Assembly: GCA_947458265.1 (NCBI GenBank)
Contig: CANGYF010000025.1
Location: forward strand, 1 to 48,900
Source: Betaproteobacteria bacterium
GTDB lineage: Bacteria > Pseudomonadota > Gammaproteobacteria > Burkholderiales > CAIKXV01
Reading direction: 5' to 3'
Length of the DNA stretch: 48,900 nt
Every line of letters begins with the position of its first letter. The stretch's first letter is position 1. The notes under the pieces were generated by a model that saw nothing but the letters and a program-made list of their open reading frames with translations, searched no databases and was not told the DNA's origin. Below, in pieces: positions 25,756 to 40,261 of the stretch. The position numbers and the translations under genes are program-made.

Positions 25756-25888
25756 GTTCAGCCCAGTGCGACGGCCCCTGCAGGTCGCAGTGGCCGGCAT
25801 GCGGGTCGCGCACGTGCTCGTCCGCCACTTGATGGAAGACATGCTTCGCCTCGCGCCGCCGTGCGACTGCCCTGGCCGACCGATCAAA

Positions 25889-25917
25889 TGCAACTGAGTA
25901 GCGCAAATGGGTTGCAT
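25889..25917 (+). promoter_or_regulatory. Candidate Zur operator(s) upstream of the DUF1826 gene
   Basis: CGCAA-N5-TTGCA at 25902-25916 has perfect GCAA/TTGC arms. A second, imperfect copy TGCAA-N5-TAGCG (25889-25903) overlaps it. The arrangement matches other copies at 29.2, 32.3 and 38.1 kb. The strong ribosome binding site of the leader ORF begins at the next base. The operator role is inferred from recurrence and gene content. Confidence 0.6.
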
Positions 25918-25935
25918 AAAGGAGGTGGCCGGTGC

Positions 25936-25971
25936 ATGCTCGGGCATCCCGTTGAAACACTTCCGACATGA
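25936..25971 (+). CDS. Eleven-codon leader ORF coupled to the DUF1826 gene
   Basis: ATG 25936 opens an 11-codon frame, MLGHPVETLPT, preceded by AAAGGAGGTG (25918-25927), close to a perfect Shine-Dalgarno, at eight bases. Its TGA overlaps the ATG of the DUF1826 gene as ATGA (25968-25971). The DUF1826 start has no ribosome binding site of its own, so translation of the leader probably delivers ribosomes to it. No run of regulatory codons is obvious. Its existence is inferred from signals alone. Confidence 0.5.
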   Translation: MLGHPVETLPT

Positions 25972-26684
25972 CGCAGGCACTCTACGGTCGATTCGCGGTC
26001 GCCAGCCGCGGCAACGATGGCGCGCAGGTGATGCGCACGGTTTCCAGCGACGATCCTTCGTCGCTGATGCGTATCCACGAGCCTTCGGTGAACCTCGCCG
26101 TCTGGCGGCGGACGCCGGATGATTCCGTGCTCGCGGCATGGCGCGACGCCTGCGCGACCGGCTCGACGGTGGTGGATGCCATCGTTCGCCCGGGCGCGCT
26201 GCACGAGGCAGACGAGACGGCCTGCGCGTCGTCCGTGGGCGAGCGGTTCGGCGTGTTCGCCCAGGACGTGCTCGTGCTGTCCCGCTGGATGGCCTGCATC
26301 GCCGGCTGCGTCGAGGTGCGTGCCCGGCTTGTGTCGATCGACGACGACCAGTGCAGGCTGTTCCATGTGGACGAGCAGGCACTGCGCATCCTCTCGACCT
26401 ATGTCGGCCCCGGTACGCAGTGGGTCGAGGAGGGCGGCGCTCGGCGCGAGCGCCTTGGCATGGGCGGCCTGCCCGCAGACGCATTCAACCGCGCGTTGCT
26501 GCTTCCGGGCGCCGCCGTGCACCAGGCACGCGCCGGCTGGGTCTGCCTGCAGAAGGGCGATGCCTATCCCGGCAACCGCGGCCGAGCGATCGTCCATCGA
26601 TCGCCGCCGATCGAAGGCAGCGGCCTGCGCCGCCTGCGGTTGACGCTCGAGCCGTCGGGCTATTGTCGATACGGACCCCCATGA
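25968..26684 (+). CDS. DUF1826 family protein, zinc-response associated
   Basis: A protein of 238 residues. I recognise DUF1826 by its central block CRLFHVDEQALRILSTYVGPGTQWVE (about residues 125-150; key residues Cys, His, Asp, then Tyr-x-Gly-Pro-Gly-Thr) and the later GDAYPGN and HRSPP. The Cys/His/Asp cluster could bind metal. The family has no proven function; I recall it near zinc-responsive genes, which fits the operator upstream and the znu cluster downstream. No signal peptide is seen, so it is cytoplasmic. It is probably translated by coupling from an upstream leader ORF. It converges on the lipoprotein gene. Confidence 0.8.
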   Translation: MTQALYGRFAVASRGNDGAQVMRTVSSDDPSSLMRIHEPSVNLAVWRRTPDDSVLAAWRDACATGSTVVDAIVRPGALHEADETACASSVGERFGVFAQDVLVLSRWMACIAGCVEVRARLVSIDDDQCRLFHVDEQALRILSTYVGPGTQWVEEGGARRERLGMGGLPADAFNRALLLPGAAVHQARAGWVCLQKGDAYPGNRGRAIVHRSPPIEGSGLRRLRLTLEPSGYCRYGPP

Positions 26685-26798
26685 ACCCCGGCGGGCGGTC
26701 CCTGCCGCTGCCACCGCCGCCTCGCGCTAAACTCCGGGCCACGCCTCGCACCACGCGACCGCCCGCGGGCTGCGGCAGGCTGCACGCAGTCCCTCCGG

Positions 26799-27218
26799 TC
26801 AGAAGCGACGCGGGTATGGCCGGAACGGGTCCCGCCAGCCATGTACCGGTCCCCAGGGACCCCAGCCCGGGCCGTAGAAGCTGCGCGCCCGCACCGATTC
26901 CTCGAACCGCACGACATCCAGATGCACGCGTTGCATGTAATCGATCACCGCGTCAGGTACGCCCTGCTCCCGCAGCTTCGCGAGTTCGCTCGCAGGCAGC
27001 CGGTAGACGGCGTGGCTGCGCTGCATGCGCTCGATGATCTGCTGTGGCGACTGTCCTGCCTTGGCCGACGCGACGATCTCGGCCAGCGAGGGCGGCGGTG
27101 GTGCCGGTTCGCCGGAGGTGGCGCAACCGGCCAGCATAAACAGCAGCACCGCCACCACTGCTGCGCGCACGAGCGTGGCGTGGCTGCGGCCAGGACGGGT
27201 ACTGATCTCGATTGCCAT
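26799..27218 (-). CDS. Small lipoprotein, function unknown
   Basis: A 139-residue precursor. From ATG 27218 (preceded by GGAGAG at five bases) there is a basic N-terminus, a hydrophobic segment and a lipobox LAGC, so Cys at about residue 31 is lipidated. The mature protein has a Pro linker (EPAPPPPS), then a conserved-looking helical region with IIERMQRSHAVYRLPASEL and REQGVPDAVIDYMQ, and ends in a Gly/Trp/Pro/Arg-rich tail (GPGWGPWGPVHGW). It lacks His- or Cys-rich metal sites. It is divergent from tonB with about 70 bases between starts; whether it belongs to the zinc island is open. Confidence 0.82.
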   Translation of the reverse strand: MAIEISTRPGRSHATLVRAAVVAVLLFMLAGCATSGEPAPPPPSLAEIVASAKAGQSPQQIIERMQRSHAVYRLPASELAKLREQGVPDAVIDYMQRVHLDVVRFEESVRARSFYGPGWGPWGPVHGWRDPFRPYPRRF

Positions 27219-27286
27219 GCATTCTCTCCGGTGCGCTGCGCGTGGCCGTGCGGCAAGCGATCGCTGGCGGGCGACAGACCCCGCGC

Positions 27287-28012
27287 ATGACAGCCGTGCG
27301 CGAGATGCCATTCGATGCTCGCCAGCGCCGGCTTGCGCTGGGGTTCACGGCCATCTTGCACGTCTTGGTGCTGGGCTGCATCTTCCTGCTCCACGTTCAG
27401 GCACCGCGTCCCGCACCCGAGCGGCCGCCGCTCGAAGTCGTGATGATCACCCCACCTGCGCCGTTGCCGGAACCCGTGCGTCCACCGGAGCCGCCCCGGA
27501 TCGCGGTGCCGCCGCCGGTCGCACGGCCGGCTCCGCCTGTACCAGCGACCCTCCCGCCACGGCCGGCCCCAGCCACACCGCCGCCGGCAGAGGTGGCACC
27601 GGCGCCCGCCGTGGCTCCCGCGCCGGTGCCCCAGGCGCTCGCGCCGGCGCTCGATGCCACGCCGCGCCCTGCCGCGCCGTCGGTTTCGGCGGCGGCGCCC
27701 GCTGCGCCTGCTGCCCGCCCCGCCGCGCTGGTGCCGCCGTCGTTCGATGCCGACTACCTGCACAATCCGACGCCGCGCTATCCGCCGGCGGCCGCACGCC
27801 TGCGCGAGACCGGGCGGGTGCTGCTGGCGGTCAGCGTCAGCGCGGCCGGGCTGCCGGAGCGGGTCGAGATCGCCGCAAGCAGCGGTTCGCCCCGCCTCGA
27901 CCAGGCGGCCCTCGAGACCGTGAAGCGCTGGCGGTTCGTGCCGGCGCGCCAGGGTGACAAGCCGGTCGCGGCTTCGGTCACCGTTCCCCTCGTGTTCAGA
28001 CTCGACGAGTAG
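27287..28012 (+). CDS. tonB: Energy transducer TonB
   Basis: A protein of 241 residues. A membrane anchor (about 17-37) is followed by a long Pro/Ala-rich periplasmic spacer (about 40-160) and a C-terminal TonB domain from about 170 with NPTPRYPPAAARLRETGRV and the closing VKRWRFVPARQGDKPV. It transmits proton-motive force to outer-membrane receptors. ATG 27287 is chosen; ATG 27305 is possible, and an upstream ATG at 27212 would overlap the divergent lipoprotein start. exbB follows five bases after the stop. The matching receptor is probably the one at 38.2-40.3 kb. Confidence 0.9.
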   Translation: MTAVREMPFDARQRRLALGFTAILHVLVLGCIFLLHVQAPRPAPERPPLEVVMITPPAPLPEPVRPPEPPRIAVPPPVARPAPPVPATLPPRPAPATPPPAEVAPAPAVAPAPVPQALAPALDATPRPAAPSVSAAAPAAPAARPAALVPPSFDADYLHNPTPRYPPAAARLRETGRVLLAVSVSAAGLPERVEIAASSGSPRLDQAALETVKRWRFVPARQGDKPVAASVTVPLVFRLDE

Positions 28013-28017
28013 ATGCC

Positions 28018-28788
28018 ATGAATGAAACCTTGAACCCGGCCGCCGCTGGCAATCCCGGTAGCAATCCCTACGGAATCAGTGCGATGCTGGCGCAGACCGA
28101 CGCCGTCGGCCTCGCGGTGATCGTGCTGCTGGTCGCGATGTCCGTCGCAAGCTGGTACTTCATCGCAGCCAAGTCGCTCGAGCAGCTGGCGCTGCGCCGG
28201 GCCGCGCGGCAGACGCCGGATGCCTTCTGGGGCGCTGCCGACCTCGCCGCCGCGGAACGCGAAGTCCGCGGCCGGGCGGGCGATCCGTTCGCCGCGCTGG
28301 CGCTGGCCGGCGTCGAGGCCTCGCGCGCCCATGAGGCCAGCACGCGCACGCTGGGCGCCGCCTGCGACCTGTCCGACTTCGTCACCCGTGCGTTGCGCCA
28401 GTCGATGGTGGCCACCACCGCCCGGCTCGAGGCCGGCCAGACCGTGCTCGCCTCGGTCGGCAGCACCGCGCCCTTCGTCGGCCTGTTCGGGACGGTCTGG
28501 GGCATCTACCATGCGCTGGTCGCGATCAGCCTGTCGGGCCAGGGCACGCTCGACAAGGTCGCCGGTCCGGTGGGCGAGGCGCTGATCATGACCGCCGCCG
28601 GGCTGGCGGTGGCGATACCGGCGGTGCTCGCCTACAACACGTTCGTGCGGGCCAACCGGCTGCTGCTGGCCCAGCTCGACGGCTTCGCGCACGACCTGCA
28701 CGCGGCACTGGCGGTCGGGCCGCGTGCGCCTTCGGCCGGCGCGTCGATCGCGGCGGCCGCGGCGCAGTCTGCGGCAAGGGGGGCATGA
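28018..28788 (+). CDS. exbB: ExbB/MotA/TolQ-family proton channel protein
   Basis: A protein of 256 residues with three membrane segments (about 28-50, 150-172 and 185-208) and the family signature from VGSTAPFVGLFGTVWGIYHA to GEALIMTAAGLAVAIPAV. With ExbD it forms the proton-driven motor that energises TonB. It overlaps exbD by four bases at the ATGA junction. Its position directly after tonB makes ExbB more likely than TolQ. Confidence 0.93.
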   Translation: MNETLNPAAAGNPGSNPYGISAMLAQTDAVGLAVIVLLVAMSVASWYFIAAKSLEQLALRRAARQTPDAFWGAADLAAAEREVRGRAGDPFAALALAGVEASRAHEASTRTLGAACDLSDFVTRALRQSMVATTARLEAGQTVLASVGSTAPFVGLFGTVWGIYHALVAISLSGQGTLDKVAGPVGEALIMTAAGLAVAIPAVLAYNTFVRANRLLLAQLDGFAHDLHAALAVGPRAPSAGASIAAAAAQSAARGA

Positions 28789-29222
28789 TGGCCTTCGGAG
28801 GATTCCAGGGGTCGTCGGAATCGCAGCCGATGGCGGAGATCAACACCACGCCGCTGGTGGACGTGATGCTGGTGCTGCTGATCATCTTCATCATCACCGC
28901 GCCGCTGCTCACCCATGCGATCCGGATCGACCTGCCGCAGGCGCGCAGCCAGGCCAGCCCGGAGAAGCCGCAGACGATCACGCTCGCAATCGACGGGCGC
29001 GGTGCGATGTTCTGGGAAGGCGAGGCGGTCGCGGCCGAGGCACTGGCTGCACGGCTCGCGGAGGCGGCGGCGCGCAAGCCGCAGCCGGAACTGCACCTGC
29101 GTGCCGACCGGGAGACGCGCTACCAGGTGCTGGCCGAAGTGATGGCGCAGGCGCGGGTCGCCGGCATGGCACGCATCGGCTTCGTCACCGACCCGTCTGC
29201 GCCAGCGGCAAAGCGCAACTGA
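28785..29222 (+). CDS. exbD: ExbD/TolR-family biopolymer transport protein
   Basis: A protein of 145 residues with one N-terminal membrane helix (about 24-46). The proton-carrying Asp lies in NTTPLVDVMLVLLIIF, and the periplasmic domain is of the ExbD/TolR type. AAGGGGGG precedes ATG 28785. The last codons lie inside a perfect 21-base palindrome (29211-29231), the candidate Zur operator of the following znu unit, so the znu promoter region begins within this gene. Confidence 0.94.
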   Translation: MMAFGGFQGSSESQPMAEINTTPLVDVMLVLLIIFIITAPLLTHAIRIDLPQARSQASPEKPQTITLAIDGRGAMFWEGEAVAAEALAARLAEAAARKPQPELHLRADRETRYQVLAEVMAQARVAGMARIGFVTDPSAPAAKRN

Positions 29223-29231
29223 ATTGCGCTT
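29211..29231 (+). promoter_or_regulatory. Candidate Zur operator before the znu operon
   Basis: Perfect eight-base arms AAGCGCAA (29211-29218) and TTGCGCTT (29224-29231) around a five-base spacer. The core is GCAA-N5-TTGC. It overlaps the exbD stop codon and lies 52 bases upstream of the small His-rich gene. This is the most symmetric copy in the window. Confidence 0.68.
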
Positions 29232-29283
29232 CCGGGCGCAACGTGGTTTCATCCGCCTCCCAGCGGGGCCAACGGAGAGAACG

Positions 29284-29481
29284 ATGCAGCGCCCTTCGGA
29301 TCCCCACGCGCATGCGCATCCGGATCACCACTCACACCCGAACCCGAACCCCGCTGCCGGCGCCCGCGCCGGCACGCCGCACGCAGCCTCCCTGTTCCTG
29401 GCGGGCAGCCGCGAGCGCCTGATGGTGGCATCCGGCGTGGTCGCCGTGCTCTGGTGCCTGGTCTGGTGGGCGCTCGACTGA
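29284..29481 (+). CDS. Small His-rich single-pass membrane protein, undescribed
   Basis: A 65-residue protein that I do not recognise as a named family. ATG 29284 is preceded by GGAGAG at five bases. The N-terminus is His-rich (six His between residues 8 and 18: His 8, 10, 12, 15, 16, 18, with Asp14), followed by a Pro/Asn/Ala linker. One C-terminal membrane helix (about 46-64) has Cys58 and three Trp. Basic residues just before the helix (SRER) predict a cytoplasmic N-terminus. It is the first gene after the operator and is followed 44 bases later by znuC. A zinc-binding accessory subunit of the Znu transporter is an inference. Confidence 0.7.
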   Translation: MQRPSDPHAHAHPDHHSHPNPNPAAGARAGTPHAASLFLAGSRERLMVASGVVAVLWCLVWWALD

Positions 29482-29525
29482 CCCTGCCGCGGCCCGGCCG
29501 GCCCTTCCCGGAATTCCCTACCGCC

Positions 29526-30284
29526 ATGCGCGCCCCGAACGCCTCCATCCGCATCGACAACCTCACGGTGGCCTACGACCGGCATCCGGCCGTGCACCAC
29601 CTGTGCGGTGCGTTCGAGGCCGGTTCGATGACCGCGATCGTCGGTCCGAACGGGGCCGGCAAGAGCAGCCTGCTGAAGGCGATCGTCGGGCTCCTGCGTC
29701 CCTCGGAGGGCACGGTGGACCTCACCGGCGCTTTGCCGCACGACATCGCCTACCTGCCGCAGCAGGCGGAGATCGACCGGCAGTTCCCGATCCCGGTGCT
29801 GGACACGGTGGCGATGGGCTTCTGGCGGCGCTGCGGCGCGTTCGGCGCGATCGACGGCGCGATGCGCGCCATCGCGCTCGACGCGCTGGCTGCGGTCGGC
29901 CTGCGCGGGTTCGAGTCGCGGCCGATCGGCACGCTGTCGGTCGGGCAGTTCCAGCGCGTGCTGTTCGCACGGGTGATGGTGCAGGACGCACCGGTGATCC
30001 TGCTCGACGAGCCGTTCAATGCGATCGACACCCGCACCACCGACGACCTGCTCGACCTGGTGCGCCGCTGGAGCGGCGAGCGGCGCACGATCATCGCGGT
30101 GCTGCACGACCTCGACCAGGTGCGCCGCAACTTCCCCGAGACGCTGCTGATCTCCCGCGAGCGCATCGGCTGGGGCACCACCGCCGAGACGCTCACCGCG
30201 GAAAACCTGATGCGGGCGCGCCAGATGTCGGAAGCCTGGGACGAGGGCGCGCCGCTGTGCGACGTGCATCCGGGACGGTCCTGA
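29526..30284 (+). CDS. znuC: Zinc ABC transporter, ATP-binding protein ZnuC
   Basis: A protein of 252 residues with Walker A GPNGAGKSS (40-48), signature LSVGQFQRVLFAR (137-149; Val replaces the usual Gly in LSGGQ) and Walker B VILLDEPFNAID (157-168). QFQRVLFAR and EPFNAID are typical of the metal-uptake ZnuC/MntB group. ATG 29526 is chosen from the start of similarity. znuB starts four bases after the stop. Metal specificity (zinc rather than manganese) is inferred from the His-rich ZnuA, the Zur-like gene and the COG0523 neighbours. Confidence 0.94.
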   Translation: MRAPNASIRIDNLTVAYDRHPAVHHLCGAFEAGSMTAIVGPNGAGKSSLLKAIVGLLRPSEGTVDLTGALPHDIAYLPQQAEIDRQFPIPVLDTVAMGFWRRCGAFGAIDGAMRAIALDALAAVGLRGFESRPIGTLSVGQFQRVLFARVMVQDAPVILLDEPFNAIDTRTTDDLLDLVRRWSGERRTIIAVLHDLDQVRRNFPETLLISRERIGWGTTAETLTAENLMRARQMSEAWDEGAPLCDVHPGRS

Positions 30285-30288
30285 ATCC

Positions 30289-31164
30289 ATGCCCGGACCC
30301 TACGAACTCCTGCTGCTGCCGTTCGTCGAATACGGCTTCATGCGCCGCGCGCTGGTCGCCTGCTTCGGGCTGGCGATCGGCTGCGGGCCGATCGGCGTGT
30401 TCCTGATCCTGCGCCGGATGAGCCTGGTCGGCGACGCGATGTCGCATGCGGTCCTGCCCGGCGCGGCGATCGCCTTCCTGATGTTCGGCTTCTCGCTCAC
30501 CGCGATGACCATCGGCGGCTTCCTGGTCGGGCTGGCGGTGGCCCTGCTCGCCGGCTCGGTCACCCGCCTCACGCCGTTGCGCGAGGACGCGAGCTTCGCC
30601 GCGCTGTTCCTGATCTCGCTGGCGCTGGGCGTCACCCTGGTTTCTTCGCAGGGCTCCAGCGTCGACCTGATGCACCTGCTGTTCGGCGCCATCCTGGCGG
30701 TGGACAACCCGGCGCTGCTGCTGATCGCCTCGATCGCCTCGGTGAGCGTGCTGACGCTCGCGGTCATCTTCCGCGCGCTGGTGATCGAATGCCTGGACCC
30801 CGGCTTCCTGCGCTCGGTGCAGGGCGGCGGCGCGCGCTTCCACTTCCTGTTCCTGGTGCTGGTGGTGCTCAACCTCGTGGCGGGTTTCCAGTCCCTGGGC
30901 ACCCTGATGACCGTCGGCCTGATGATGCTGCCGGCCGCCAGCGCCCGCTTCTGGACGGCGGGCATCGGCCCGATGCTGGTGTTCTCGGCGTGCGCGGCCT
31001 TCGCCTGCGGCTATGTCGGGCTGCTGGTGTCCTACCACGCGAACCTGCCTTCGGGCCCTTCGATCATCCTCACGGCCGGCGTGCTGTACGTGCTGTCGGT
31101 GGCGTTCGGACGCCATGGCGGCCTGGTCGCGAACTACCTGCGCGCGCCGCACTTCCAGCGCTGA
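30289..31164 (+). CDS. znuB: Zinc ABC transporter, membrane protein ZnuB
   Basis: A protein of 291 residues with eight or nine hydrophobic helices and the ABC-3 family blocks GPIGVFLILRRMSLVGDAMSHAVLPG and GTLMTVGLMMLPAASAR. It is the inner-membrane channel for zinc delivered by ZnuA. It lies four bases after znuC and 48 before znuA, so the three are one transcript. A His in the second block (SHAVLPG) is conserved in the family. Confidence 0.95.
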   Translation: MPGPYELLLLPFVEYGFMRRALVACFGLAIGCGPIGVFLILRRMSLVGDAMSHAVLPGAAIAFLMFGFSLTAMTIGGFLVGLAVALLAGSVTRLTPLREDASFAALFLISLALGVTLVSSQGSSVDLMHLLFGAILAVDNPALLLIASIASVSVLTLAVIFRALVIECLDPGFLRSVQGGGARFHFLFLVLVVLNLVAGFQSLGTLMTVGLMMLPAASARFWTAGIGPMLVFSACAAFACGYVGLLVSYHANLPSGPSIILTAGVLYVLSVAFGRHGGLVANYLRAPHFQR

Positions 31165-31212
31165 CGCGGCGCCTGCCGCGGGCTTTCGTATTCCATCCGG
31201 AGCGTCGTCACC

Positions 31213-32244
31213 ATGGTCCATCCGTCCGTCCCGCCACCTTGCTCCCGGCGCCGAGGCCTGGTCGCAGGGCTTGCCGGCCTGCTGCTGCTCGCCGGCTGCG
31301 GGCCCGCCGGCGATGCCGGGCGCCCGGGCGATGGGGCGGGCAAGCCGGCGGCCGCGGCTGCGCCTACCGCGCCGCCGAAACTGCCGGTGGTCGTCACCTT
31401 CACCATCCTCGCCGACATGGTGGCGACCGTCGGCGGCGACCGCGTCGAGGTCGCGACCCTGGTCGGGCCGGACAGCGACGCCCATGTGTTCTCCCCGACG
31501 CCCGCGGCCGCGAAGACGATCGCCGCCGCGAAGGTGGTGTTCGTCAACGGGCTGGGGTTCGAGGGGTGGATGGACAAGCTGATCGCCGCGTCGGGCTACA
31601 AGGGGCCGCTGGTGGTGGCGACCGACGGCGTGGAGGTGCTCAAGGTCAAGCCGCAGCCGCATTCGCACCGGCATGGACACTCGCACGGGCACGACCATGG
31701 GGAAGTCGATCCGCATGCATGGCAGAGCCTGTCCAATGCCCGGCGCTACGTGGCGAACATCGCCGACGCGCTGTCGGCCGCCGATCCCGCCCACGAGGCA
31801 GGTTACCGCGCGCGGGCGAAGGCGTACGACGAGCGGCTCGCGCAACTCGACGAGAAGGCCCGTGCACGCCTCGGCGCCATACCGGCGAGCGAGCGGCGGG
31901 TGATCGTCGGGCACGACGCGTTCGGCTATTTCGCGCGCGCCTACGGACTGACCTTCCTGTCCCCGCGCGGGGTCAGCACCGATTCCGAGGCGAGCGCGAA
32001 GGACGTGGCGCAGCTGGCACGCCAGATCCGCGCGCAGCGCATCCGCGCGGTGTTCGTCGAGAACATCAGCGACCCGCGCCTGGTCGAGCAGCTGGCGCGG
32101 GAGTCCGGTGCCCGCGTCGGCGGCACGCTCTTCTCGGACGCACTGTCGGCGAAGGACAAGCGGGCGCTGACTTACCTCGACATGATGAGTCACAATATCG
32201 AGGAGGTGGCGAAGGCGCTCGCGCCGTCGGGTCCCGGCAACTGA
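31213..32244 (+). CDS. znuA: Zinc ABC transporter, substrate-binding lipoprotein ZnuA
   Basis: A protein of 343 residues. A lipobox LAGC places the lipidated Cys at 29, followed by a Gly/Pro/Ala linker. Metal ligands expected for cluster A-I proteins are present: His91 (SDAHVFSP), His168 (DPHAW), His234 (GHDAF) and Asp309 (FSDALS). Between the first two is a mobile His-rich loop with seven His between 150 and 162, the mark of zinc-specific ZnuA. Being a lipoprotein rather than soluble is common in some lineages. It ends 58 bases before the operator of the Fur-family gene. Confidence 0.96.
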   Translation: MVHPSVPPPCSRRRGLVAGLAGLLLLAGCGPAGDAGRPGDGAGKPAAAAAPTAPPKLPVVVTFTILADMVATVGGDRVEVATLVGPDSDAHVFSPTPAAAKTIAAAKVVFVNGLGFEGWMDKLIAASGYKGPLVVATDGVEVLKVKPQPHSHRHGHSHGHDHGEVDPHAWQSLSNARRYVANIADALSAADPAHEAGYRARAKAYDERLAQLDEKARARLGAIPASERRVIVGHDAFGYFARAYGLTFLSPRGVSTDSEASAKDVAQLARQIRAQRIRAVFVENISDPRLVEQLARESGARVGGTLFSDALSAKDKRALTYLDMMSHNIEEVAKALAPSGPGN

Positions 32245-32302
32245 CTGCATGGGTGCCTTCGCGGCCAGGACCCGCCGCGGGGCATGGCCGCGGGCGAACA
32301 GA

Positions 32303-32317
32303 CGCAACTCGATTGCA
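32303..32317 (+). promoter_or_regulatory. Candidate Zur operator overlapping the zur promoter
   Basis: CGCAA-N5-TTGCA (32303-32317). The right arm forms a -35-like TTGCAC (32313-32318), followed 17 bases later by a -10-like TAACCT. A repressor bound here would block RNA polymerase, implying autoregulation of the zur gene. Confidence 0.6.
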
Positions 32318-32358
32318 CAAGAATTTCCTCGGTGCTAACCTGCATTCCGGAGGCAGAC

Positions 32359-32838
32359 ATGCGCGCAGCAAGCAGTGAATCCCGCCGTAGCTCCACCGCC
32401 GCCGGTGCCATGTCCGCGGCCGAACAGCTGATCCGCGCCACCGGCGCACGGGTCACGCAGGGCCGCATCCTGGTGCTCGAGGTGCTGCAGGCGGCCGGCC
32501 GGGCGCTGACGCACCACGAAATCGAGGCGGCGGTCGCCGGGCCGCTCGACCGGGTCACGGTCTACCGCGTCCTCGACTGGCTCACCCGCGAGCAGATCGC
32601 GCACAAGATCCCGGGGGACGACCGGGTCTGGCGCTTCACCATCGCCGGGCAGAAGCAGGCGCACCACCATGCGCATTTCCAGTGCACCGACTGCAGCCAG
32701 GTGATCTGCCTGGACGACGTGCCCAACACGCTGCGTCCCCGGTTGCCTGCGGGATATCGCTCGGTGGGCGTCGAGGTCACCGTCAAGGGGCAGTGCAAGT
32801 CCTGCGTGCGGCCTGCGCCGCGCCGCAGTCGGCGCTAG
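32359..32838 (+). CDS. zur: Fur-family transcriptional regulator, probably Zur
   Basis: A protein of 159 residues. The winged helix (about 25-85) includes RVTQGRILVLEVLQ and DRVTVYRVLDWL. The dimerisation domain starts at the HHHAHFQC run and holds two CxxC pairs, Cys109/Cys112 and Cys146/Cys149, the structural zinc site of the family. GGAGG at 32349-32353 supports ATG 32359. Fur, Zur, Mur and PerR cannot be told apart by motifs alone; zinc is inferred from the flanking znuCBA and COG0523 genes. A copy of the shared palindrome sits over its own promoter. Confidence 0.9.
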   Translation: MRAASSESRRSSTAAGAMSAAEQLIRATGARVTQGRILVLEVLQAAGRALTHHEIEAAVAGPLDRVTVYRVLDWLTREQIAHKIPGDDRVWRFTIAGQKQAHHHAHFQCTDCSQVICLDDVPNTLRPRLPAGYRSVGVEVTVKGQCKSCVRPAPRRSRR

Positions 32839-32841
32839 CGA

Positions 32842-32898
32842 GGCATCCGGGCTGGCGGATGGCCGCGGGGCGGCCGTCCTGCCCGTCGACCGGATGCC
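32842..32898 (+). other. Long-range stem in the zur-COG0523 gap
   Basis: GGCATCCGG (32842-32850) is the exact complement of CCGGATGCC (32890-32898). Between them lies a second hairpin GGCCG/CGGCC (32861-32865 with 32871-32875). It begins three bases after the zur stop and has no T-run. It may be a terminator-like or RNA-stabilising structure. Confidence 0.4.
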
Positions 32899-32955
32899 GC
32901 ATGCGCGTGCCGCTTCCCGCGTACACAGCATCGAGTCGACAATGAAGGGTGTCCG

Positions 32956-33984
<1,029 letters not shown>

Positions 33985-33994
33985 GGCGCAGGCG

Positions 33995-35269
<1,275 letters not shown>

Positions 35270-35349
35270 CGGCCGGGGCAGGTCGTACGGCCGATGCACG
35301 GCGGCCGCGACCCGTGACGCGCATCGCGAGGCGCGATAACCTCCGCCCC

Positions 35350-36006
35350 ATGACCGTCCTCGAAGTCAACGCCCTGTCCCACCGCTACGGCAATGCCACC
35401 GTGGTGGAAATGCCTGCCTGGTCGGTCGCGGCGGGCGAGCCGTGGCTGCTGCTGGGCGCATCGGGCAGCGGCAAGACCACGCTGCTGCACTGCCTCGCCG
35501 GCATCCTCGCGCCGACGCAGGGCTCGGTGAAGGTCGGCGGGACCGACCTCGCGACGCTGCACGGCTCGGCGCTGGACCGCTTCCGCGGCCGCCACATCGG
35601 GCTGCTGCCGCAGCGCCTGCACCTGATCGACTGCCTGAGCGTGCTCGACAACCTGTTGCTGGCGCAATATGCCGCGGGCCTGCCGCGCGACGCCGCGGCT
35701 GCGCGCGGCGCGCTGGAGGCCCTCGGCCTGGCCGGGCGTGCGCACGAACGTCCGCACCGCCTGTCGTTCGGGCAGCAGCAGCGCGTGGCGCTCGCGCGTG
35801 CGCTGATCAACCGGCCGACGCTGGTGCTGGCCGACGAGCCCACCTCCAACCTCGATGACGGCAACTGCGCGGCGGCGCTCGACCTGCTGCTCGACCAGGC
35901 CGGCCGCAGCGGTGCTGCGCTGGTGATCGCGACGCACGACCAGCGCGTCAAGGGGCGCATCGAGCGGCGGGTGGAACTCACTGGCGGAATGGCGGTGCCG
36001 GCATGA
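35350..36006 (+). CDS. ABC transporter ATPase of a zinc-responsive FtsX-type system
   Basis: A protein of 218 residues with Walker A GASGSGKTT (36-44), signature LSFGQ (138-142; Phe replaces Gly) and Walker B LVLADEPTSN (158-167). It belongs to the LolD/FtsE-like group. ATG 35350 comes 80 bases after the second COG0523 gene. The permease overlaps its stop as ATGA. With the DUF3299 gene downstream this order matches, from memory, the zinc-limitation-induced P. aeruginosa locus PA4064-PA4066. Confidence 0.92.
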   Translation: MTVLEVNALSHRYGNATVVEMPAWSVAAGEPWLLLGASGSGKTTLLHCLAGILAPTQGSVKVGGTDLATLHGSALDRFRGRHIGLLPQRLHLIDCLSVLDNLLLAQYAAGLPRDAAAARGALEALGLAGRAHERPHRLSFGQQQRVALARALINRPTLVLADEPTSNLDDGNCAAALDLLLDQAGRSGAALVIATHDQRVKGRIERRVELTGGMAVPA

Positions 36007-37445
36007 ACCTGTTCACCCTGGCCCTCGCCTACCTGCGCTCGCGCCTGCTCGCGTCGGTGCTGCAGGTCCTGCTGCTCGCCATCGGGCTGGCTGCGATCGT
36101 GGTCATGCTGCTGGTCAGCACGCAGCTGGCCGATCGGGTCGAGCGCGACACCCGGGGCATCGACCTGGTGGTCGGTGCCAAGGGCAGTCCGCTGCAGCTG
36201 GTCCTGTCGTCGGTGTTCCATGTCGACTCGCCGACCGGCAACATCCCGTATGCCGAGGCGATGAAGCTGAGCCGGCATCCGCTCGTCAAGAAGGCGATCC
36301 CGCTGGCGCTGGGCGACACCTGGCGCGGGTATCGCATCGTCGGCACCGAGCACGCGCTGGTCGAGCACTATGGCGCGTCGCTCGCGTCCGGCAAGCTGTG
36401 GTCGGGCGAGATGCAGGCGGTGGTCGGGGCCGAAGCCGCGCGCGCCGGCGGGGCCGGCGGTGGGCCGATCAAGCTCGGCGACACCATCATCGGCTCGCAT
36501 GGCCTGGTCGATGGCGGCGCGGCGCACGACGAACATCCCTATGAAGTGGTCGGCATCCTGGCGCCGACCGGCGGCGTGATCGACCGGCTCGTCCTGGTGA
36601 GCGTCGAGACGGTCTGGGACGTGCATCCGCTGCCGCCGGGCGCGGCGGCGGCGGCGGCAGCCGGCCCACCGGCCGCCGCCGGGGCTGCCCCGACGCCTGC
36701 CCCGAAGGCCGCCGCCGCGCCGGCGCGAGACGACGGCCATGGCCACGCCGGCCATTCCCACGCGCGGCCTGCTGCGAAAGCCGGCGCGAAGCCGCACGCC
36801 CACGCGCATGCGCACGACCACCCGCATGACGATGCGCCCGCAGCGAGCCGCCCCGGCGGCGACGCCGCCGGGCCCGGTGGCAGTGCGAAGCCGGCTCCCG
36901 GACGCGAACTGACGGCGCTGCTCATCCAGTATTCCTCGCCGATGGCGGCTGCCCAGTTGCCGCGCCTGGTCAACTCGGCCACCGCGATGCAGGCGGCTTC
37001 GCCGGCCGCCGAGAGCGTCCGCCTGAACCGCCTGGTCGGGGTCGGCGTCGAGACGCTGCGCGTTTTCGCCTGGGTGCTGCTGGTCGCCGCCGGGCTGGCG
37101 CTGTTCATCAGCCTGTATGGCGCGCTGTCCGAGCGCAGCCGCGACCTGGCGATGCTGCGGGTGCTCGGCGCCCGCCGGGGATCCCTGCTGCTGCTGCTGC
37201 TGCTGGAGGGGTTGCTGCTGTGCGCAGCCGGCGGGGCGATCGGGTTGCTGGCGGGCCATGCCCTGACCGAATGGCTGGGGCGCAGCGTGCCGGCGCTGTC
37301 GCAGTGGGCGCTGACCGGGTGGACCCTCGCGCCCGGAGAGGGCTGGCTGGTCGCCCTGGCGCTGCTGATCGGGGCGTTTGCCTCGATGCTGCCTGCGGTG
37401 CTAGCCTACCGGACCGACATCGCGAAGGTGCTCGCCCGGGGCTGA
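36003..37445 (+). CDS. FtsX-type ABC permease with His-rich periplasmic loop
   Basis: A permease of 480 residues. Helix 1 (about 14-40), a large periplasmic domain (about 45-340) and three C-terminal helices (about 348-370, 395-420 and 448-470) give FtsX topology. Inside the periplasmic domain an Ala/Pro/Gly-rich linker (from about 215) leads to a His-rich stretch at about 244-277 with ten His (GHGHAGHSH then PHAHAHAHDHPHDD). This is unlike lipoprotein-releasing LolC/E and suggests metal sensing or binding. It overlaps the ATPase gene by four bases. Its partner is the DUF3299 protein downstream. Confidence 0.92.
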   Translation: MNLFTLALAYLRSRLLASVLQVLLLAIGLAAIVVMLLVSTQLADRVERDTRGIDLVVGAKGSPLQLVLSSVFHVDSPTGNIPYAEAMKLSRHPLVKKAIPLALGDTWRGYRIVGTEHALVEHYGASLASGKLWSGEMQAVVGAEAARAGGAGGGPIKLGDTIIGSHGLVDGGAAHDEHPYEVVGILAPTGGVIDRLVLVSVETVWDVHPLPPGAAAAAAAGPPAAAGAAPTPAPKAAAAPARDDGHGHAGHSHARPAAKAGAKPHAHAHAHDHPHDDAPAASRPGGDAAGPGGSAKPAPGRELTALLIQYSSPMAAAQLPRLVNSATAMQAASPAAESVRLNRLVGVGVETLRVFAWVLLVAAGLALFISLYGALSERSRDLAMLRVLGARRGSLLLLLLLEGLLLCAAGGAIGLLAGHALTEWLGRSVPALSQWALTGWTLAPGEGWLVALALLIGAFASMLPAVLAYRTDIAKVLARG

Positions 37446-37485
37446 CGCCGTGTTTGCGCGCCGTGCCCGGGCCGCCGAGAACATC

Positions 37486-37995
37486 ATGTCAATTGCAAAA
37501 TGGTTGCCCTGGGTCGTGCTGGTCGCGCTTGCCGCGCCCGCTGCACTGGCCTTCAAGACCCCGTCGCGCGACGAGGCCGTGTTCGCGTCCCCGATTCCGC
37601 CGCAGTTCCAGCAGAAGGCGGTCGACGAGAAGAACGGCACGCTGTCCTGGCGCACGCTGGCGCAGGTCGCCACCGTCAAGCAGCGCGACAAGTTCGTGCC
37701 GCAGTTCAGCGAGGCGGTGCTCGCCTTCGACAACCGCCAGGTCCGGCTGCAGGGCTTCATGATGCCGCTCACCACCGGCGAGCAGCACAAGACCTTCCTG
37801 TTGAGCGCGCAATCGCCCAGTTGCCCGTTCTGCCTGCCCGGCGGCCCCGATTCCCTGGTCGAGGTTCAGGCGCGCGCGCCGATGCGCTTCGGCGAGGAGC
37901 CGGTCATTTTGGCCGGCCGGCTGCAACTGCTGCGCAACGATCCGGGCGGTCTCTACTACCGGCTGGTGGATGCGACGCCGGTGGCGGCGAAGTAG
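37486..37995 (+). CDS. DUF3299 family exported protein
   Basis: A 169-residue precursor. From ATG 37486 there is a signal peptide (MSIAKWLPWVVLVALAAPA, then ALAF). The mature part contains VRLQGFMMPL and a CxxC (SPSCPFCLPGG), both DUF3299 features. An alternative GTG at 37450 would lengthen the N-terminus. The function is unknown. Its place after a LolD-like ATPase and an FtsX permease recurs in zinc-responsive operons as far as I recall. A copy of the GCAA-N5-TTGC core (37495-37507) falls inside its first codons. A strong terminator follows. Confidence 0.87.
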   Translation: MSIAKWLPWVVLVALAAPAALAFKTPSRDEAVFASPIPPQFQQKAVDEKNGTLSWRTLAQVATVKQRDKFVPQFSEAVLAFDNRQVRLQGFMMPLTTGEQHKTFLLSAQSPSCPFCLPGGPDSLVEVQARAPMRFGEEPVILAGRLQLLRNDPGGLYYRLVDATPVAAK

Positions 37996-38034
37996 CGGCG
38001 GCCCGGGCCTCGCGACAGCGGGGCAGGAGCAGGG

Positions 38035-38060
38035 AAGGGGAGCGTGCAGCTCCCCTTTTT
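38035..38060 (+). terminator. Rho-independent terminator after the DUF3299 gene
   Basis: AAGGGGAGC / GCTCCCCTT (38035-38043 and 38049-38057), nine perfect pairs, loop GTGCA, followed by TTT. It closes the unit that starts upstream of the ABC genes and isolates the TonB receptor gene. Confidence 0.88.
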
Positions 38061-38107
38061 CATTCTGGCGCCCCACGCGGAGCGTGAGGCGGATGCCGTG
38101 TTGCATC

Positions 38108-38163
38108 TGCAATCCAGTTGCGTTATCGTTCGCGCCAACATGAACATGCAACTGATTTGCATG
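38108..38163 (+). promoter_or_regulatory. Two candidate Zur operators upstream of the TonB-dependent receptor
   Basis: Site 1 is TGCAA-N5-TTGCG at 38108-38122. Site 2 is CATGCAA-N5-TTGCATG at 38145-38163 with perfect seven-base arms. Their centres are about 39 bases apart. They lie 56-111 bases upstream of the receptor ATG. Tandem sites suggest tight repression of the receptor when metal is plentiful. Confidence 0.65.
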
Positions 38164-38218
38164 GACGAAGAACGCGGTGCGCCCTGAGACGGGGAGAGGC
38201 GTGCCCAGGGAGAAGCAG

Positions 38219-40261
38219 ATGCACGAGTGTTCGAAGCTCGCCGCGATGGTCGCCGGCGCATTCATCGGTGGCACCGCCTTCGGGCAATCGACGCAGGGCC
38301 AGGGCGCGCCGCGTTCGGTGGTCGAGCTGCCGCCGGTCGTGGTCACTGGCAATCCGCTGGGCAGCGCGCTGTTCGACCTTGCCGCGCCGATCACCGTGCT
38401 GCAGGGCGAGGCGTTGCGGCAGCGCATCGCGCCCTCGCTCGGGGAAACGCTCAACGGCGAGCCCGGCATCTCTTCCAGCTACTTCGGGCCCGGCGCCAGC
38501 CGTCCGGTGATCCGCGGGCTCGATGGCGAGCGCATCCGCATCCTGTCCAATGGCGTGGCGAACCTCGATGCGTCGGGCACCAGCGTCGACCACGCGGTGT
38601 CCATCGAGCCCTTGCTGGTCGACCGCATCGAAGTCGTGCGTGGCCCGGCGGCCATCCTGTACGGCGGTTCCGCGGTCGGCGGCGTGGTCAACGTCGTCGA
38701 CAGCCGCATCGCGACCGAGAACAACCCGCGCGGCGTCTCGGGTGCGGTCGATACCCGCTTCGGGTCGAACGACCGCGAGAAGGCGGTGGTGGGCCGGGTC
38801 GACTTCGGACTCGAAGGCGGCCTCAACCTGCACTTCGATGCGTTCCGGCGCGACACCGACGACCTGCGCATCCCCGGCTTCGCGCGTTCCGCCCGCCTGC
38901 GTGCCACCACGCCGCCGGCCAATGGCGTCGAGGCCAGCGGCACGCTGGTGAACAGCTCGACCCGGTCTGACGGTGGCGCGGCAGGTGCGTCCTATGTCTG
39001 GGCGCAAGGCTACTTCGGCGGCAGCATCTCCACCCTGAACTCGACCTACGGCACGGTGCAGGAGCCGGAAGTGTCGATCAAGCTCGACCAGACCCGCATC
39101 GACCTCGCCGGCGAGCGCCGCGACATCGCCGCGTTCGAGGCAGTGCGCTTCAAGTTCGGGCGCAGCAGCTACCGCCATGCGGAGATCGATGCCGGTACCG
39201 TGGGCACCGTGTTCCGCAACCAGGGCTTCGACATGCGGGTCGAGGCGGTGCACAAGCCGATCGGCCCCTTCCGAGGTACCGTGGGCTTCCAGTCGACCCG
39301 TTTCGAGTTCGAGGCAGTGGGCGACGAGGCCTTCCTGCCCCGGACTTCGAACCGCACCAACGGCCTGTTCCTGTTCGAGGAAGTGAAGATCGACGCCCTG
39401 ACGCTGCAGGCGGGCGGTCGTCTCGAGCGGAACAGCGTCGGCGCGCTGGACGACCCGAACTTCGGCCCGGCGGAGACGCGCAACTTCACCGCGAAGAGCG
39501 GATCGATCGGCGGCGTGTACAGCCTGAACCGGGCGTATGCGGTCGCGCTCAACCTGTCGCGCACCGAGCGTGCGCCCAACTACCAGGAACTGTTCGCCAA
39601 CGGCCCGCACATCGCGACCAACGCGTTCGAGATCGGCAACCGCTCGTTCGGGCTGGAAGTGTCGAATGCGGTCGATCTGTCGCTGCGCAAGCGCGAAGGG
39701 CGCGTGACCGGCAGTGCCGGCGTGTTCTACAACCGATTCTCCAACTTCATCGCGCTGGTGTCGGACGCGACCTTCGTCGACCCTGATCCGGTGCGCAACC
39801 TGCCTGGCCTGCGCTACACCGGCGTGCCCGCGGAGTTCAAGGGCGCGGAGGCCTCCGCCCGCATGCTGCTGGTCGATCGCCCGTACCGTGTCGCGCTCGA
39901 CGTGAAGGGCGACATCACCCGTGCCGAGAACACGGATACCGGCGAGCCCCTGCCGCGCATCTCGCCGATGCGTTTCGGTGGCGGGCTGTCGTTCGAGCAG
40001 GGCCCGCTGACCGCGCGCATCGATGCGATGCGGGTGCGTGGACAGGACCGGGTATCCGCGGGCGAGTTGCCGACCGATGGCTACACGATGGTCAACGCGA
40101 GCGTCGGCTACCGGATGAACGTGCCCATGGCGAAGCTCGACCTGTTCCTGCGCGGGGTGAACCTGCTCAACCAGGAAGCCCGCAACCATGTGTCGTTCAT
40201 CAAGGATCTCGCGCCCTACGGGCGGCGCGGCGTCGTCGCCGGGCTGCGCGCGACCTTCTGA
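38219..40261 (+). CDS. TonB-dependent outer-membrane receptor, probably zinc (ZnuD-like)
   Basis: A receptor of 680 residues. A signal peptide (residues 1-22, ending GTAFG) and a TonB-box-like VVVTGNP lead into a plug domain (about 40-155) with SRPVIRGLDGERIRIL and the closing block RGPAAILYGGSAVGGVVNV. The barrel ends in an aromatic C-terminal residue (LRATF). AGGGAGA supports ATG 38219. Context and operators suggest zinc import like ZnuD. However, I see no His-rich extracellular loop, so heme, a metallophore or another chelate remains possible. The TonB motor is encoded 9 kb upstream. Confidence 0.9.
   Translation: MHECSKLAAMVAGAFIGGTAFGQSTQGQGAPRSVVELPPVVVTGNPLGSALFDLAAPITVLQGEALRQRIAPSLGETLNGEPGISSSYFGPGASRPVIRGLDGERIRILSNGVANLDASGTSVDHAVSIEPLLVDRIEVVRGPAAILYGGSAVGGVVNVVDSRIATENNPRGVSGAVDTRFGSNDREKAVVGRVDFGLEGGLNLHFDAFRRDTDDLRIPGFARSARLRATTPPANGVEASGTLVNSSTRSDGGAAGASYVWAQGYFGGSISTLNSTYGTVQEPEVSIKLDQTRIDLAGERRDIAAFEAVRFKFGRSSYRHAEIDAGTVGTVFRNQGFDMRVEAVHKPIGPFRGTVGFQSTRFEFEAVGDEAFLPRTSNRTNGLFLFEEVKIDALTLQAGGRLERNSVGALDDPNFGPAETRNFTAKSGSIGGVYSLNRAYAVALNLSRTERAPNYQELFANGPHIATNAFEIGNRSFGLEVSNAVDLSLRKREGRVTGSAGVFYNRFSNFIALVSDATFVDPDPVRNLPGLRYTGVPAEFKGAEASARMLLVDRPYRVALDVKGDITRAENTDTGEPLPRISPMRFGGGLSFEQGPLTARIDAMRVRGQDRVSAGELPTDGYTMVNASVGYRMNVPMAKLDLFLRGVNLLNQEARNHVSFIKDLAPYGRRGVVAGLRATF

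What the first reader, a model, noticed from the sequence alone, without database searches (positions are those of the whole stretch)
25889..40261. A single 14-kb zinc-acquisition and zinc-economy island with outer-membrane, inner-membrane and cytosolic parts
DUF1826, tonB-exbB-exbD, a His-rich small protein, znuCBA, a Zur-like regulator, two COG0523 GTPases, an FtsX-type ABC pair with His-rich loop, DUF3299 and a TonB-dependent receptor lie in one co-directional block (only the small lipoprotein is opposed). Established: ZnuABC, COG0523 and Zur act in zinc starvation. Inferred: the whole block is one regulon forming a complete route from outside the cell to apo-enzymes. Having the dedicated TonB motor inside the same block is unusual and suggests a private energising system for the zinc receptor.
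Basis: partly seen in the sequence, partly recalled or inferred. Interest (0 to 1): 0.75.

Follow-up and report, generated by a model that had tools for sequence, protein, structure and literature searches.

The report
Zinc-starvation gene island, betaproteobacterial variant
A cluster of genes that probably lets an uncultured betaproteobacterium scavenge zinc when it is scarce is real, and four of its start points carry a shared switch-like sequence; nearly all of its parts are known from other bacteria, but their combination, and a transporter with a built-in histidine-rich loop, make it a variant worth testing.

Summary
In detail: every named gene family is there, in order, co-directional except one lipoprotein, between xerC and hslVU. 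A 17-bp palindrome, tested with sites from zur loci outside the genus, marks four promoters in the block (DUF1826; His-rich ORF plus ABC importer; zur; receptor). No box precedes tonB-exbB-exbD, so 'one regulon' is not shown for the motor. The genome has a second TonB and another ExbBD locus; the island TonB is more like two zinc-island TonBs of other loci (40 and 47%) than like the genome's own second TonB (26%). A Zur-linked TonB motor is already published for Acinetobacter baumannii. Corrections: 'znuCBA' scores as AztABC-like; the second COG0523 is ZigA; the receptor is ZnuD-like; FtsX/DUF3299 is a PA4064-4066/Zrg-like MacB-type unit. New here: the xerC-hslVU zinc hub recurs outside the genus with a ZIP importer where this genus has an Azt-type ABC, and the MacB-type permease carries a His-rich loop. 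In 47 permease loci that loop never coexists with a small secreted His/Cys protein encoded beside it: suggestive, not significant after correction for kinship. New variant of a known kind.

The parts
25888..25917 (.). two overlapping Zur-box-like sites (25888-25904, 25901-25917) before DUF1826
   Evidence: PWM scores 17.1 and 20.1; identical in L142 and L144, one site at score 8 or more in L179
25968..26684 (+). DUF1826 gene
   Evidence: PF08856 E 8.1e-47; a DUF1826 gene of Francisella novicida is Zur-regulated (PMC5786701)
26799..27218 (-). small lipoprotein, opposed
   Evidence: ORF with VLLFMLAGC, lipobox-like by recall; a 126-aa ORF lies at the same place in L142. The 'lipo' query was in a wrong frame and shows DNA similarity only
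27287..28012 (+). tonB (start uncertain: TTG 27212 or ATG 27287)
   Evidence: PF03544 E 2.5e-22; 40 and 47% identical to TonBs of L074 and L099, 26% to the genome's other TonB
28018..28788 (+). exbB
   Evidence: PF01618 E 3e-31
28785..29222 (+). exbD
   Evidence: PF02472 E 1.2e-33
29213..29229 (.). Zur-box-like site before the His-rich ORF and ABC genes
   Evidence: PWM 17.1; same site in L062, L064, L142, L144, L145; a related site before the ABC genes in L069
29284..29481 (+). 65-aa ORF: His-rich N-tail plus one hydrophobic stretch that reads as a membrane helix
   Evidence: C-terminal stretch kept in L062, L142, L069; no His tail in L069 (by eye); no convincing Pfam match
29526..30284 (+). 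ABC ATPase, AztA-like
   Evidence: NCBIfam AztA 211.5 bits (cut-off 220)
30289..31164 (+). ABC permease, AztB-like
   Evidence: AztB 262.7 bits (cut-off 280) against ZnuB 72.5
31213..32244 (+). substrate-binding lipoprotein with His-rich stretch, AztC-like
   Evidence: PF01297; AztC 323.6 bits (cut-off 350) against ZnuA 77.5
32302..32318 (.). Zur-box-like site before zur
   Evidence: PWM 22.2; of 9 congener zur loci L033-L041: same offset in 5 (L033-L037), other offset in L040, none in L041, no upstream sequence in L038 and L039
32359..32838 (+). zur
   Evidence: PF01475; profile matches E. coli Zur 4mtd E 4.6e-14, a Fur (9ire) slightly better
32956..33984 (+). COG0523 GTPase, YjiA-like
   Evidence: PF02492 + PF07683; PRK11537 305 bits, below its cut-off 361
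33995..35269 (+). COG0523 GTPase ZigA
   Evidence: NCBIfam ZigA 661 bits, over the cut-off 600
35350..36006 (+). ABC ATPase of the MacB/FtsE/LolD class
   Evidence: PF00005; LolD, FtsE and MacB models all below cut-off
36003..37445 (+). MacB/FtsX-type permease
   Evidence: PF02687 + PF12704; an ABC permease and MacB chains in PDB; four long helices in a low-confidence model
36624..36902 (+). stretch of the permease gene that holds the His-rich insertion in the domain between helices 1 and 2
   Evidence: 61 residues plus a shorter piece absent from seven orthologues outside the genus; slot of 107 residues with 11 His here against 22-51 residues in 34 of 47 permeases
37486..37995 (+). DUF3299 protein (PA4066/ZrgE-like)
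   Evidence: PF11736 weak; profile to 4hsp E 0.003
38032..38060 (+). terminator-like hairpin
   Evidence: -25.2 kcal/mol for 38020-38068, z -3.31
38107..38162 (.). two Zur-box-like sites 39 bp apart (38107-38123, 38146-38162) before the receptor
   Evidence: PWM 17.9 and 30.1; 38-39 bp spacing recurs
38177..40261 (+). TonB-dependent receptor, ZnuD-like
   Evidence: best PDB match ZnuD 4rdr E 1.7e-66; NCBIfam ZnuD 318 bits, far below its cut-off 950

Best explanation
A Zur-controlled zinc-starvation island. When zinc is scarce, Zur leaves its boxes and four promoters open: DUF1826; the His-rich ORF with an Azt-type ABC importer; zur itself, read on through two COG0523 GTPases, the MacB-type ABC unit and DUF3299 to the hairpin at 38032-38060; and the ZnuD-like receptor. 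The receptor brings zinc across the outer membrane, driven by the adjacent TonB-ExbB-ExbD, whose TonB resembles those of zinc islands elsewhere but which is probably not itself directly Zur-controlled. The AztC-like lipoprotein collects zinc and AztAB imports it; the GTPases hand it to enzymes. The MacB-type unit with its His-rich loop manages periplasmic zinc or a metal complex. Shown: gene content, order, conserved boxes, a distinct TonB. Inferred: operon extents, Zur binding, every transport step, the direction of the MacB-type unit.
For: Family matches. Symmetrical box 21 times in 72 zur loci outside the genus (1.25 Mb), mean 0.3 for 300 permuted palindromes (highest 10, a close variant). 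A PWM from 17 distinct sites outside the genus finds 6 sites of score 8 or more in the 48.9-kb window, all in the block; 60 shuffles: mean 0.85, most 3. All 4 exact matches of the pattern in the 4.01-Mb genome lie in the block. Congeners mostly keep boxes before the same genes. Second TonB, an exbBD at lpxK, TolR in tolQRAB; island TonB closer to two other islands' TonBs.
Against: The consensus was first read by eye in the window, so the exact genome matches are partly circular. No expression or binding data. No box before tonB, ftsE or DUF3299. With two mismatches the pattern matches 120 times in the genome against 62 for its control, so weak sites mean little; three one-mismatch sites lie elsewhere, scoring 13.0, 10.1 and 7.9. 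Congener L041/L069 has no box before zur. The importer's AztABC scores are just under the curated cut-offs, and a Mn importer model comes next (MntC 258 bits), so zinc specificity is inferred. In 10 of 14 DUF1826 loci scanned (15 found) no box of score 8 lies within the stretch fetched, about 1.5 kb.
Confidence: 0.8

Rival explanations
1. The TonB-ExbB-ExbD genes are a general motor that merely sits in the island and serves all five TonB-dependent receptors found in the genome; only the flanking genes are the zinc regulon.
For: No box before tonB in the window or the congeners that hold it; opposed gene between it and the DUF1826 promoter; L069 keeps tonB without exbB or exbD matches. Five plug-domain receptors in the genome.
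Against: A second TonB and an exbBD at lpxK exist. Island TonB is 40 and 47% identical to TonBs of two other zinc islands and 26% to the genome's other TonB (pairwise only, no tree). In L080 and L103 the order is box, DUF4198, receptor, tonB, exbB, exbD, zur (the L103 box scores 10.8); L092 is alike but without a tonB match; L093 has sites before tonB-exbB-exbD-receptor.
Confidence: 0.35
2. The MacB-type unit (35350-37995) exports a metallophore or metal complex, as proposed for PA4063-PA4066 with pyochelin and cobalt, instead of handling zinc itself.
For: MacB-class permease; functional study in P. aeruginosa (PMC11481552, passages read).
Against: His-rich loop in the permease of this genus and in members of three other families; V. 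cholerae ZrgA is needed for normal growth in zinc-poor conditions when znuA is deleted (PMC9820375). A metallophore cluster was not looked for, so this is weak.
Confidence: 0.35
3. The ABC importer is a manganese or mixed-metal importer related to AztABC.
For: MntC (Deinococcus model) 258 bits, second after AztC 324.
Against: AztA, AztB and AztC are the best models for the three proteins; Zur-box-like promoter; His-rich stretch; position beside zur and a ZnuD-like receptor.
Confidence: 0.12

Closest known systems
Acinetobacter baumannii Zur regulon (PMC3516566, passages read)
   Same: znu genes with zur, ZnuD-type receptors, a metal-chaperone gene, and tonB1-exbB1-exbD1 with a Zur site, suggested to be dedicated to zinc
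   Different: Far-apart locus tags there; here physically joined, and the motor lacks its own box
Pseudomonas aeruginosa PA4063-PA4066 and Vibrio cholerae ZrgABCDE (PMC11481552, PMC8561739, PMC9820375, passages read)
   Same: MacB-type ATPase and permease with a PA4066-type protein, Zur-controlled there
   Different: No ZrgA/PA4063-like gene recognised in the block; the permease carries its own His-rich loop
Paracoccus denitrificans AztABCD (PMC7731109, passages read)
   Same: Best-scoring models for all three importer proteins
   Different: Scores slightly below curated cut-offs; AztD was not searched for
Cupriavidus metallidurans and Burkholderia cenocepacia zinc-starvation responses (PMC10882993, PMC6103462, PMC10563805, passages read)
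   Same: Betaproteobacterial Zur with COG0523 proteins and receptors
   Different: C. metallidurans imports by ZupT and has its cobW1 operon apart. The Burkholderia box logo is a figure that I could not see, so the motif was not compared and may be the same
ZnuD of Neisseria (PDB 4rdr)
   Same: Closest solved receptor by sequence, E 1.7e-66
   Different: Far below NCBIfam's ZnuD cut-off

Membership tests
Zur regulator (Fur superfamily) | Fur-family sequence with two Cys pairs and relation to a solved Zur | tested here: met
   Invariant C109, C112, C146, C149 in 15 sequences; 4mtd E 4.6e-14, though a Fur (9ire) scores slightly better, so sequence alone does not separate Zur from Fur
Zur regulator (Fur superfamily) | zinc-dependent binding to the boxes | not testable with these tools
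   needs purified protein; the box is common next to zur in relatives
ZnuABC | ZnuA/ZnuB equivalog scores over cut-off | tested here: not met
   ZnuA 77.5 against 268, ZnuB 72.5 against 284
AztABC | equivalog scores over cut-off | tested here: inconclusive
   best models, but 211.5/220, 262.7/280, 323.6/350
ZigA COG0523 GTPase | NCBIfam ZigA cut-off 600 | tested here: met
   661 bits
ZnuD receptor | NCBIfam 'zinc piracy ZnuD' cut-off 950 | tested here: not met
   318 bits; nevertheless best match in NCBIfam and PDB
PA4063-PA4066 / Zrg system | MacB-type ATPase and permease beside a DUF3299/PA4066-type protein | tested here: met
   helix count from a low-confidence model
PA4063-PA4066 / Zrg system | ZrgA/PA4063 periplasmic protein | tested here: inconclusive
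   no such gene seen among the block's ORFs; neither sequence was used as a query and the genome was not searched
Dedicated (private) TonB system | another TonB and ExbBD in the genome | tested here: met
Dedicated (private) TonB system | co-regulation with the zinc receptor | tested here: inconclusive
   no box before tonB, which speaks against it; expression not testable

The most novel reading that the evidence does not exclude
The MacB-type unit is a periplasmic zinc-handling machine with an interchangeable metal-binding module. In some lineages the module is a separate small secreted His/Cys protein (one of two unlike types) encoded between permease and DUF3299; in others, including this genus, a His-rich loop inserted at one place in the permease does the job. 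The unit would pass zinc from the ZnuD-type receptor towards the Azt importer and not export a metallophore.
Probability: 0.2. Interest if true: 0.6.

Novelty: new variant of a known kind. Interest (0 to 1): 0.42.

Why it matters
It gives a testable Zur-box map for an uncultured betaproteobacterial lineage, shows that a xerC-hslVU zinc hub recurs outside the genus while its inner-membrane importer differs (ZIP or Azt-type ABC), and offers a natural comparison, loop against separate His/Cys protein, for the disputed function of the PA4063-4066/Zrg transporter class.

Tried and rejected
E. coli-type Zur box GTTATANNATAAC: 6 matches with up to 3 mismatches, 5.8 expected. sigma-70 consensus scan: 0 found, 0.7 expected, uninformative. 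The terminator scan did not list the 38032 hairpin; folding did.

AlphaFold of DUF1826 (4 sequences): pLDDT 35, discarded; permease (8 sequences): pLDDT 50, only the helix count is used. I had wondered whether DUF1826 is a metal-dependent oxygenase from its conserved FHVD and VHRS stretches; untested, not claimed. Fold searches were not run because the models were poor. The DUF1826 alignment printed contains at least one wrong frame (L170) and is not used.

Loop against separate small protein: of 47 loci 13 have a loop (slot of 65-109 residues, 6 to 12 His in 40), 34 have a short slot (22-51 residues, at most 5 His in 40, which repeats on an alignment what one search did by ORF starts and could not assess for L194 and L202, and only in part for L196 and L221-L223). 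16 have small protein type A (tblastn), 6 type B (by eye; Pfam confirmed the 3 scanned), 12 neither, 0 loop plus small protein. The cut-off was set after seeing the data. Fisher p 4e-5 by locus, 0.07 by family; on the tree (quick method, with long branches) only 3 independent pairs, no power. So suggestive only. Twelve loci with neither weaken the idea of an obligatory module; in two of them (L218, L220) DUF3299 is not next to the permease. The 47 are the hits with E below 1e-115 of a search in which 119 of 399 genomes matched; the weaker hits were dropped, among them three contig-cut fragments of the own genus.

Paper searches: Zur + betaproteobacteria + hslV + cobW, none; MacB + histidine-rich + Zur + permease + zinc, 3 papers, 2 listed, of which I read passages of PMC8561739 only. 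These cover only the open library.
Full report
What is there. The block lies on a contig of a 4.01-Mb assembly in 33 contigs; the nearest named records are uncultured, mostly labelled Betaproteobacteria or Burkholderiales. NCBIfam sharpens them: the ABC importer is best matched by AztA, AztB and AztC, each just under its cut-off, and by ZnuA and ZnuB only far below theirs; the second COG0523 protein is ZigA over its cut-off; the first is YjiA-like; the receptor is ZnuD-like (PDB 4rdr E 1.7e-66). The DUF3299 protein matches PA4066 (4hsp) by profile, E 0.003, after a single-sequence search found nothing. The permease belongs with MacB/FtsX proteins.

Regulation. No E. coli-type Zur box stands out. 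Reading the promoter regions showed a 17-bp palindrome, RYGCAACYNRWTTGCRY. With up to 3 mismatches it is not clearly above chance in the window as a whole (25 matches, 19 expected); only the close matches count. Because it was read in the window, I tested it outside. In 72 zur loci outside the genus (the best 80 of 532 relatives, minus 8 congeners) the symmetrical form occurs 21 times in 1.25 Mb, against a mean of 0.3 for 300 permuted palindromes, the highest being 10 for a close variant; some of these loci are near copies of each other. A weight matrix from the 17 distinct outside sites gives 6 sites of score 8 or more in the window, all in the block, against a shuffle mean of 0.85 and maximum of 3 in 60. 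They mark four promoters: DUF1826, the His-rich ORF with the ABC genes, zur, and the receptor. Congeners mostly have boxes before the same genes where their contigs hold them; exceptions are L041/L069, without a box before zur, and L040, with one at another offset. In the whole genome all 4 exact matches are in the block, and 1 of 4 one-mismatch matches. Sites 38 or 39 bp apart make up 18 of 40 close pairs in all loci held, though that count includes the same places more than once. Two weak sites (7.5 and 10.3) 39 bp apart lie before a DUF4198-receptor pair elsewhere in the genome (contig C4); another site of score 11.0 lies in the same 12-kb stretch, so neither would stand alone. That receptor is 72% identical to the one some relatives carry inside the hub.

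What has no box: tonB-exbB-exbD, ftsE and DUF3299. The genes from zur to DUF3299 are close enough to be one transcript (gaps of 117 bp or less), ending at a hairpin with a T-run; this is inferred. The motor is separated from the DUF1826 promoter by an opposed gene.

Is the motor private? The genome has one other TonB_C protein (beside what reads as a ribonuclease gene and aroE), another exbB-exbD beside what reads as lpxK, and a tolQRAB-like cluster (neighbours named by reading, not searched), and five plug-domain receptors. The island TonB is 40 and 47% identical to TonBs in the zinc hubs of L074 and L099, and 26% to the genome's other TonB (pairwise, two hub TonBs compared). Of 10 outside loci that reach from zur to hslV on one strand, 7 hold a tonB; 4 of all 72 hold exbB and exbD. 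In L080 and L103 the order is box, DUF4198, receptor, tonB, exbB, exbD, zur. So a TonB in this hub is not peculiar to the genus. The idea of a zinc-dedicated motor was published for A. baumannii (PMC3516566).

The hub. Of the 72 outside loci, 16 have xerC or hslV on the strand of zur, 15 have both the permease and DUF3299, 15 have a ZIP importer, none has a match to the Azt-type ATPase on that strand, 2 have DUF1826 (many loci are cut by contig ends, and matches are tblastn hits to a few queries). In the congeners no ZIP match was found and the Azt-type ABC is there instead where the contig reaches. Other outside loci, such as those of Nitrosospira and Duganella, have different arrangements, so the hub is not universal.

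The permease loop. Compared with seven orthologues of 402-407 residues the window permease (480) has a long insertion rich in His between the conserved VW.VH and TALLIQY stretches. Among 47 strong permease loci from a search of 399 genomes, 13 have such a loop, in four families, and 34 a short slot. 16 have a small secreted-looking His/Cys protein between permease and DUF3299, 6 a PepSY_2-type His/Cys protein in the same place, 12 neither, and none both a loop and a small protein. The loop state changes 5 times on the tree, at least 3 forced by well supported branches; but only 3 independent pairs exist and the sign test has no power. A precedent for such compensation, a His-stretch in UreG where UreE is missing, is reported in PMC2770081 (passage read).

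Relation to known systems. A DUF1826 gene was shown to be Zur-regulated in F. novicida (PMC5786701), and DUF1826 is named in a figure legend on Zur-linked COG0523 clusters (PMC2770081). The MacB-type unit is disputed: zinc import through ZrgABC (PMC9820375) or export of a pyochelin-cobalt complex (PMC11481552). Nothing here decides it. B. cenocepacia induces a ZnuABC, Zur, two receptors and a COG0523 protein under zinc starvation (PMC10563805).

Verdict. Observation right; interpretation partly right. A new variant of a known kind of zinc island, with a predicted regulon map and one testable oddity in the permease.

Noticed in passing
L160:4423-7605 (own genome, contig C4 about 258.4-261.6 kb): A DUF4198-receptor pair with two weak Zur-box-like sites 39 bp apart; related to the pair inside the hub of L078, L080, L081, L092 and L103.
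   Followed up: partly
window 29284-29481: 65-aa ORF with a His-rich tail and a conserved hydrophobic stretch, first after a Zur-box-like site; in L069 the hydrophobic stretch is kept but the His tail is not there.
   Followed up: partly
L203:2800-3063, L205:1157-1429, L215:4330-4590: PepSY_2-type small His/Cys protein between permease and DUF3299, in two families.
   Followed up: partly
L118:16751-17116: 121-aa His-containing protein without Pfam match between DUF3299 and the receptor; matches in L078, L080, L081, L101, L114.
   Followed up: no
own genome C6:68171 and C18:59104: Two further CobW_C proteins outside the block.
   Followed up: no
G003, G006, G010: Each of these congeners has a second DUF1826 copy elsewhere, without a box of score 8 in the stretch fetched.
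   Followed up: partly
L066: Record title says MAG Bordetella parapertussis, yet its zur is 96% identical to the window's; probably a mislabelled MAG (inference).
   Followed up: no
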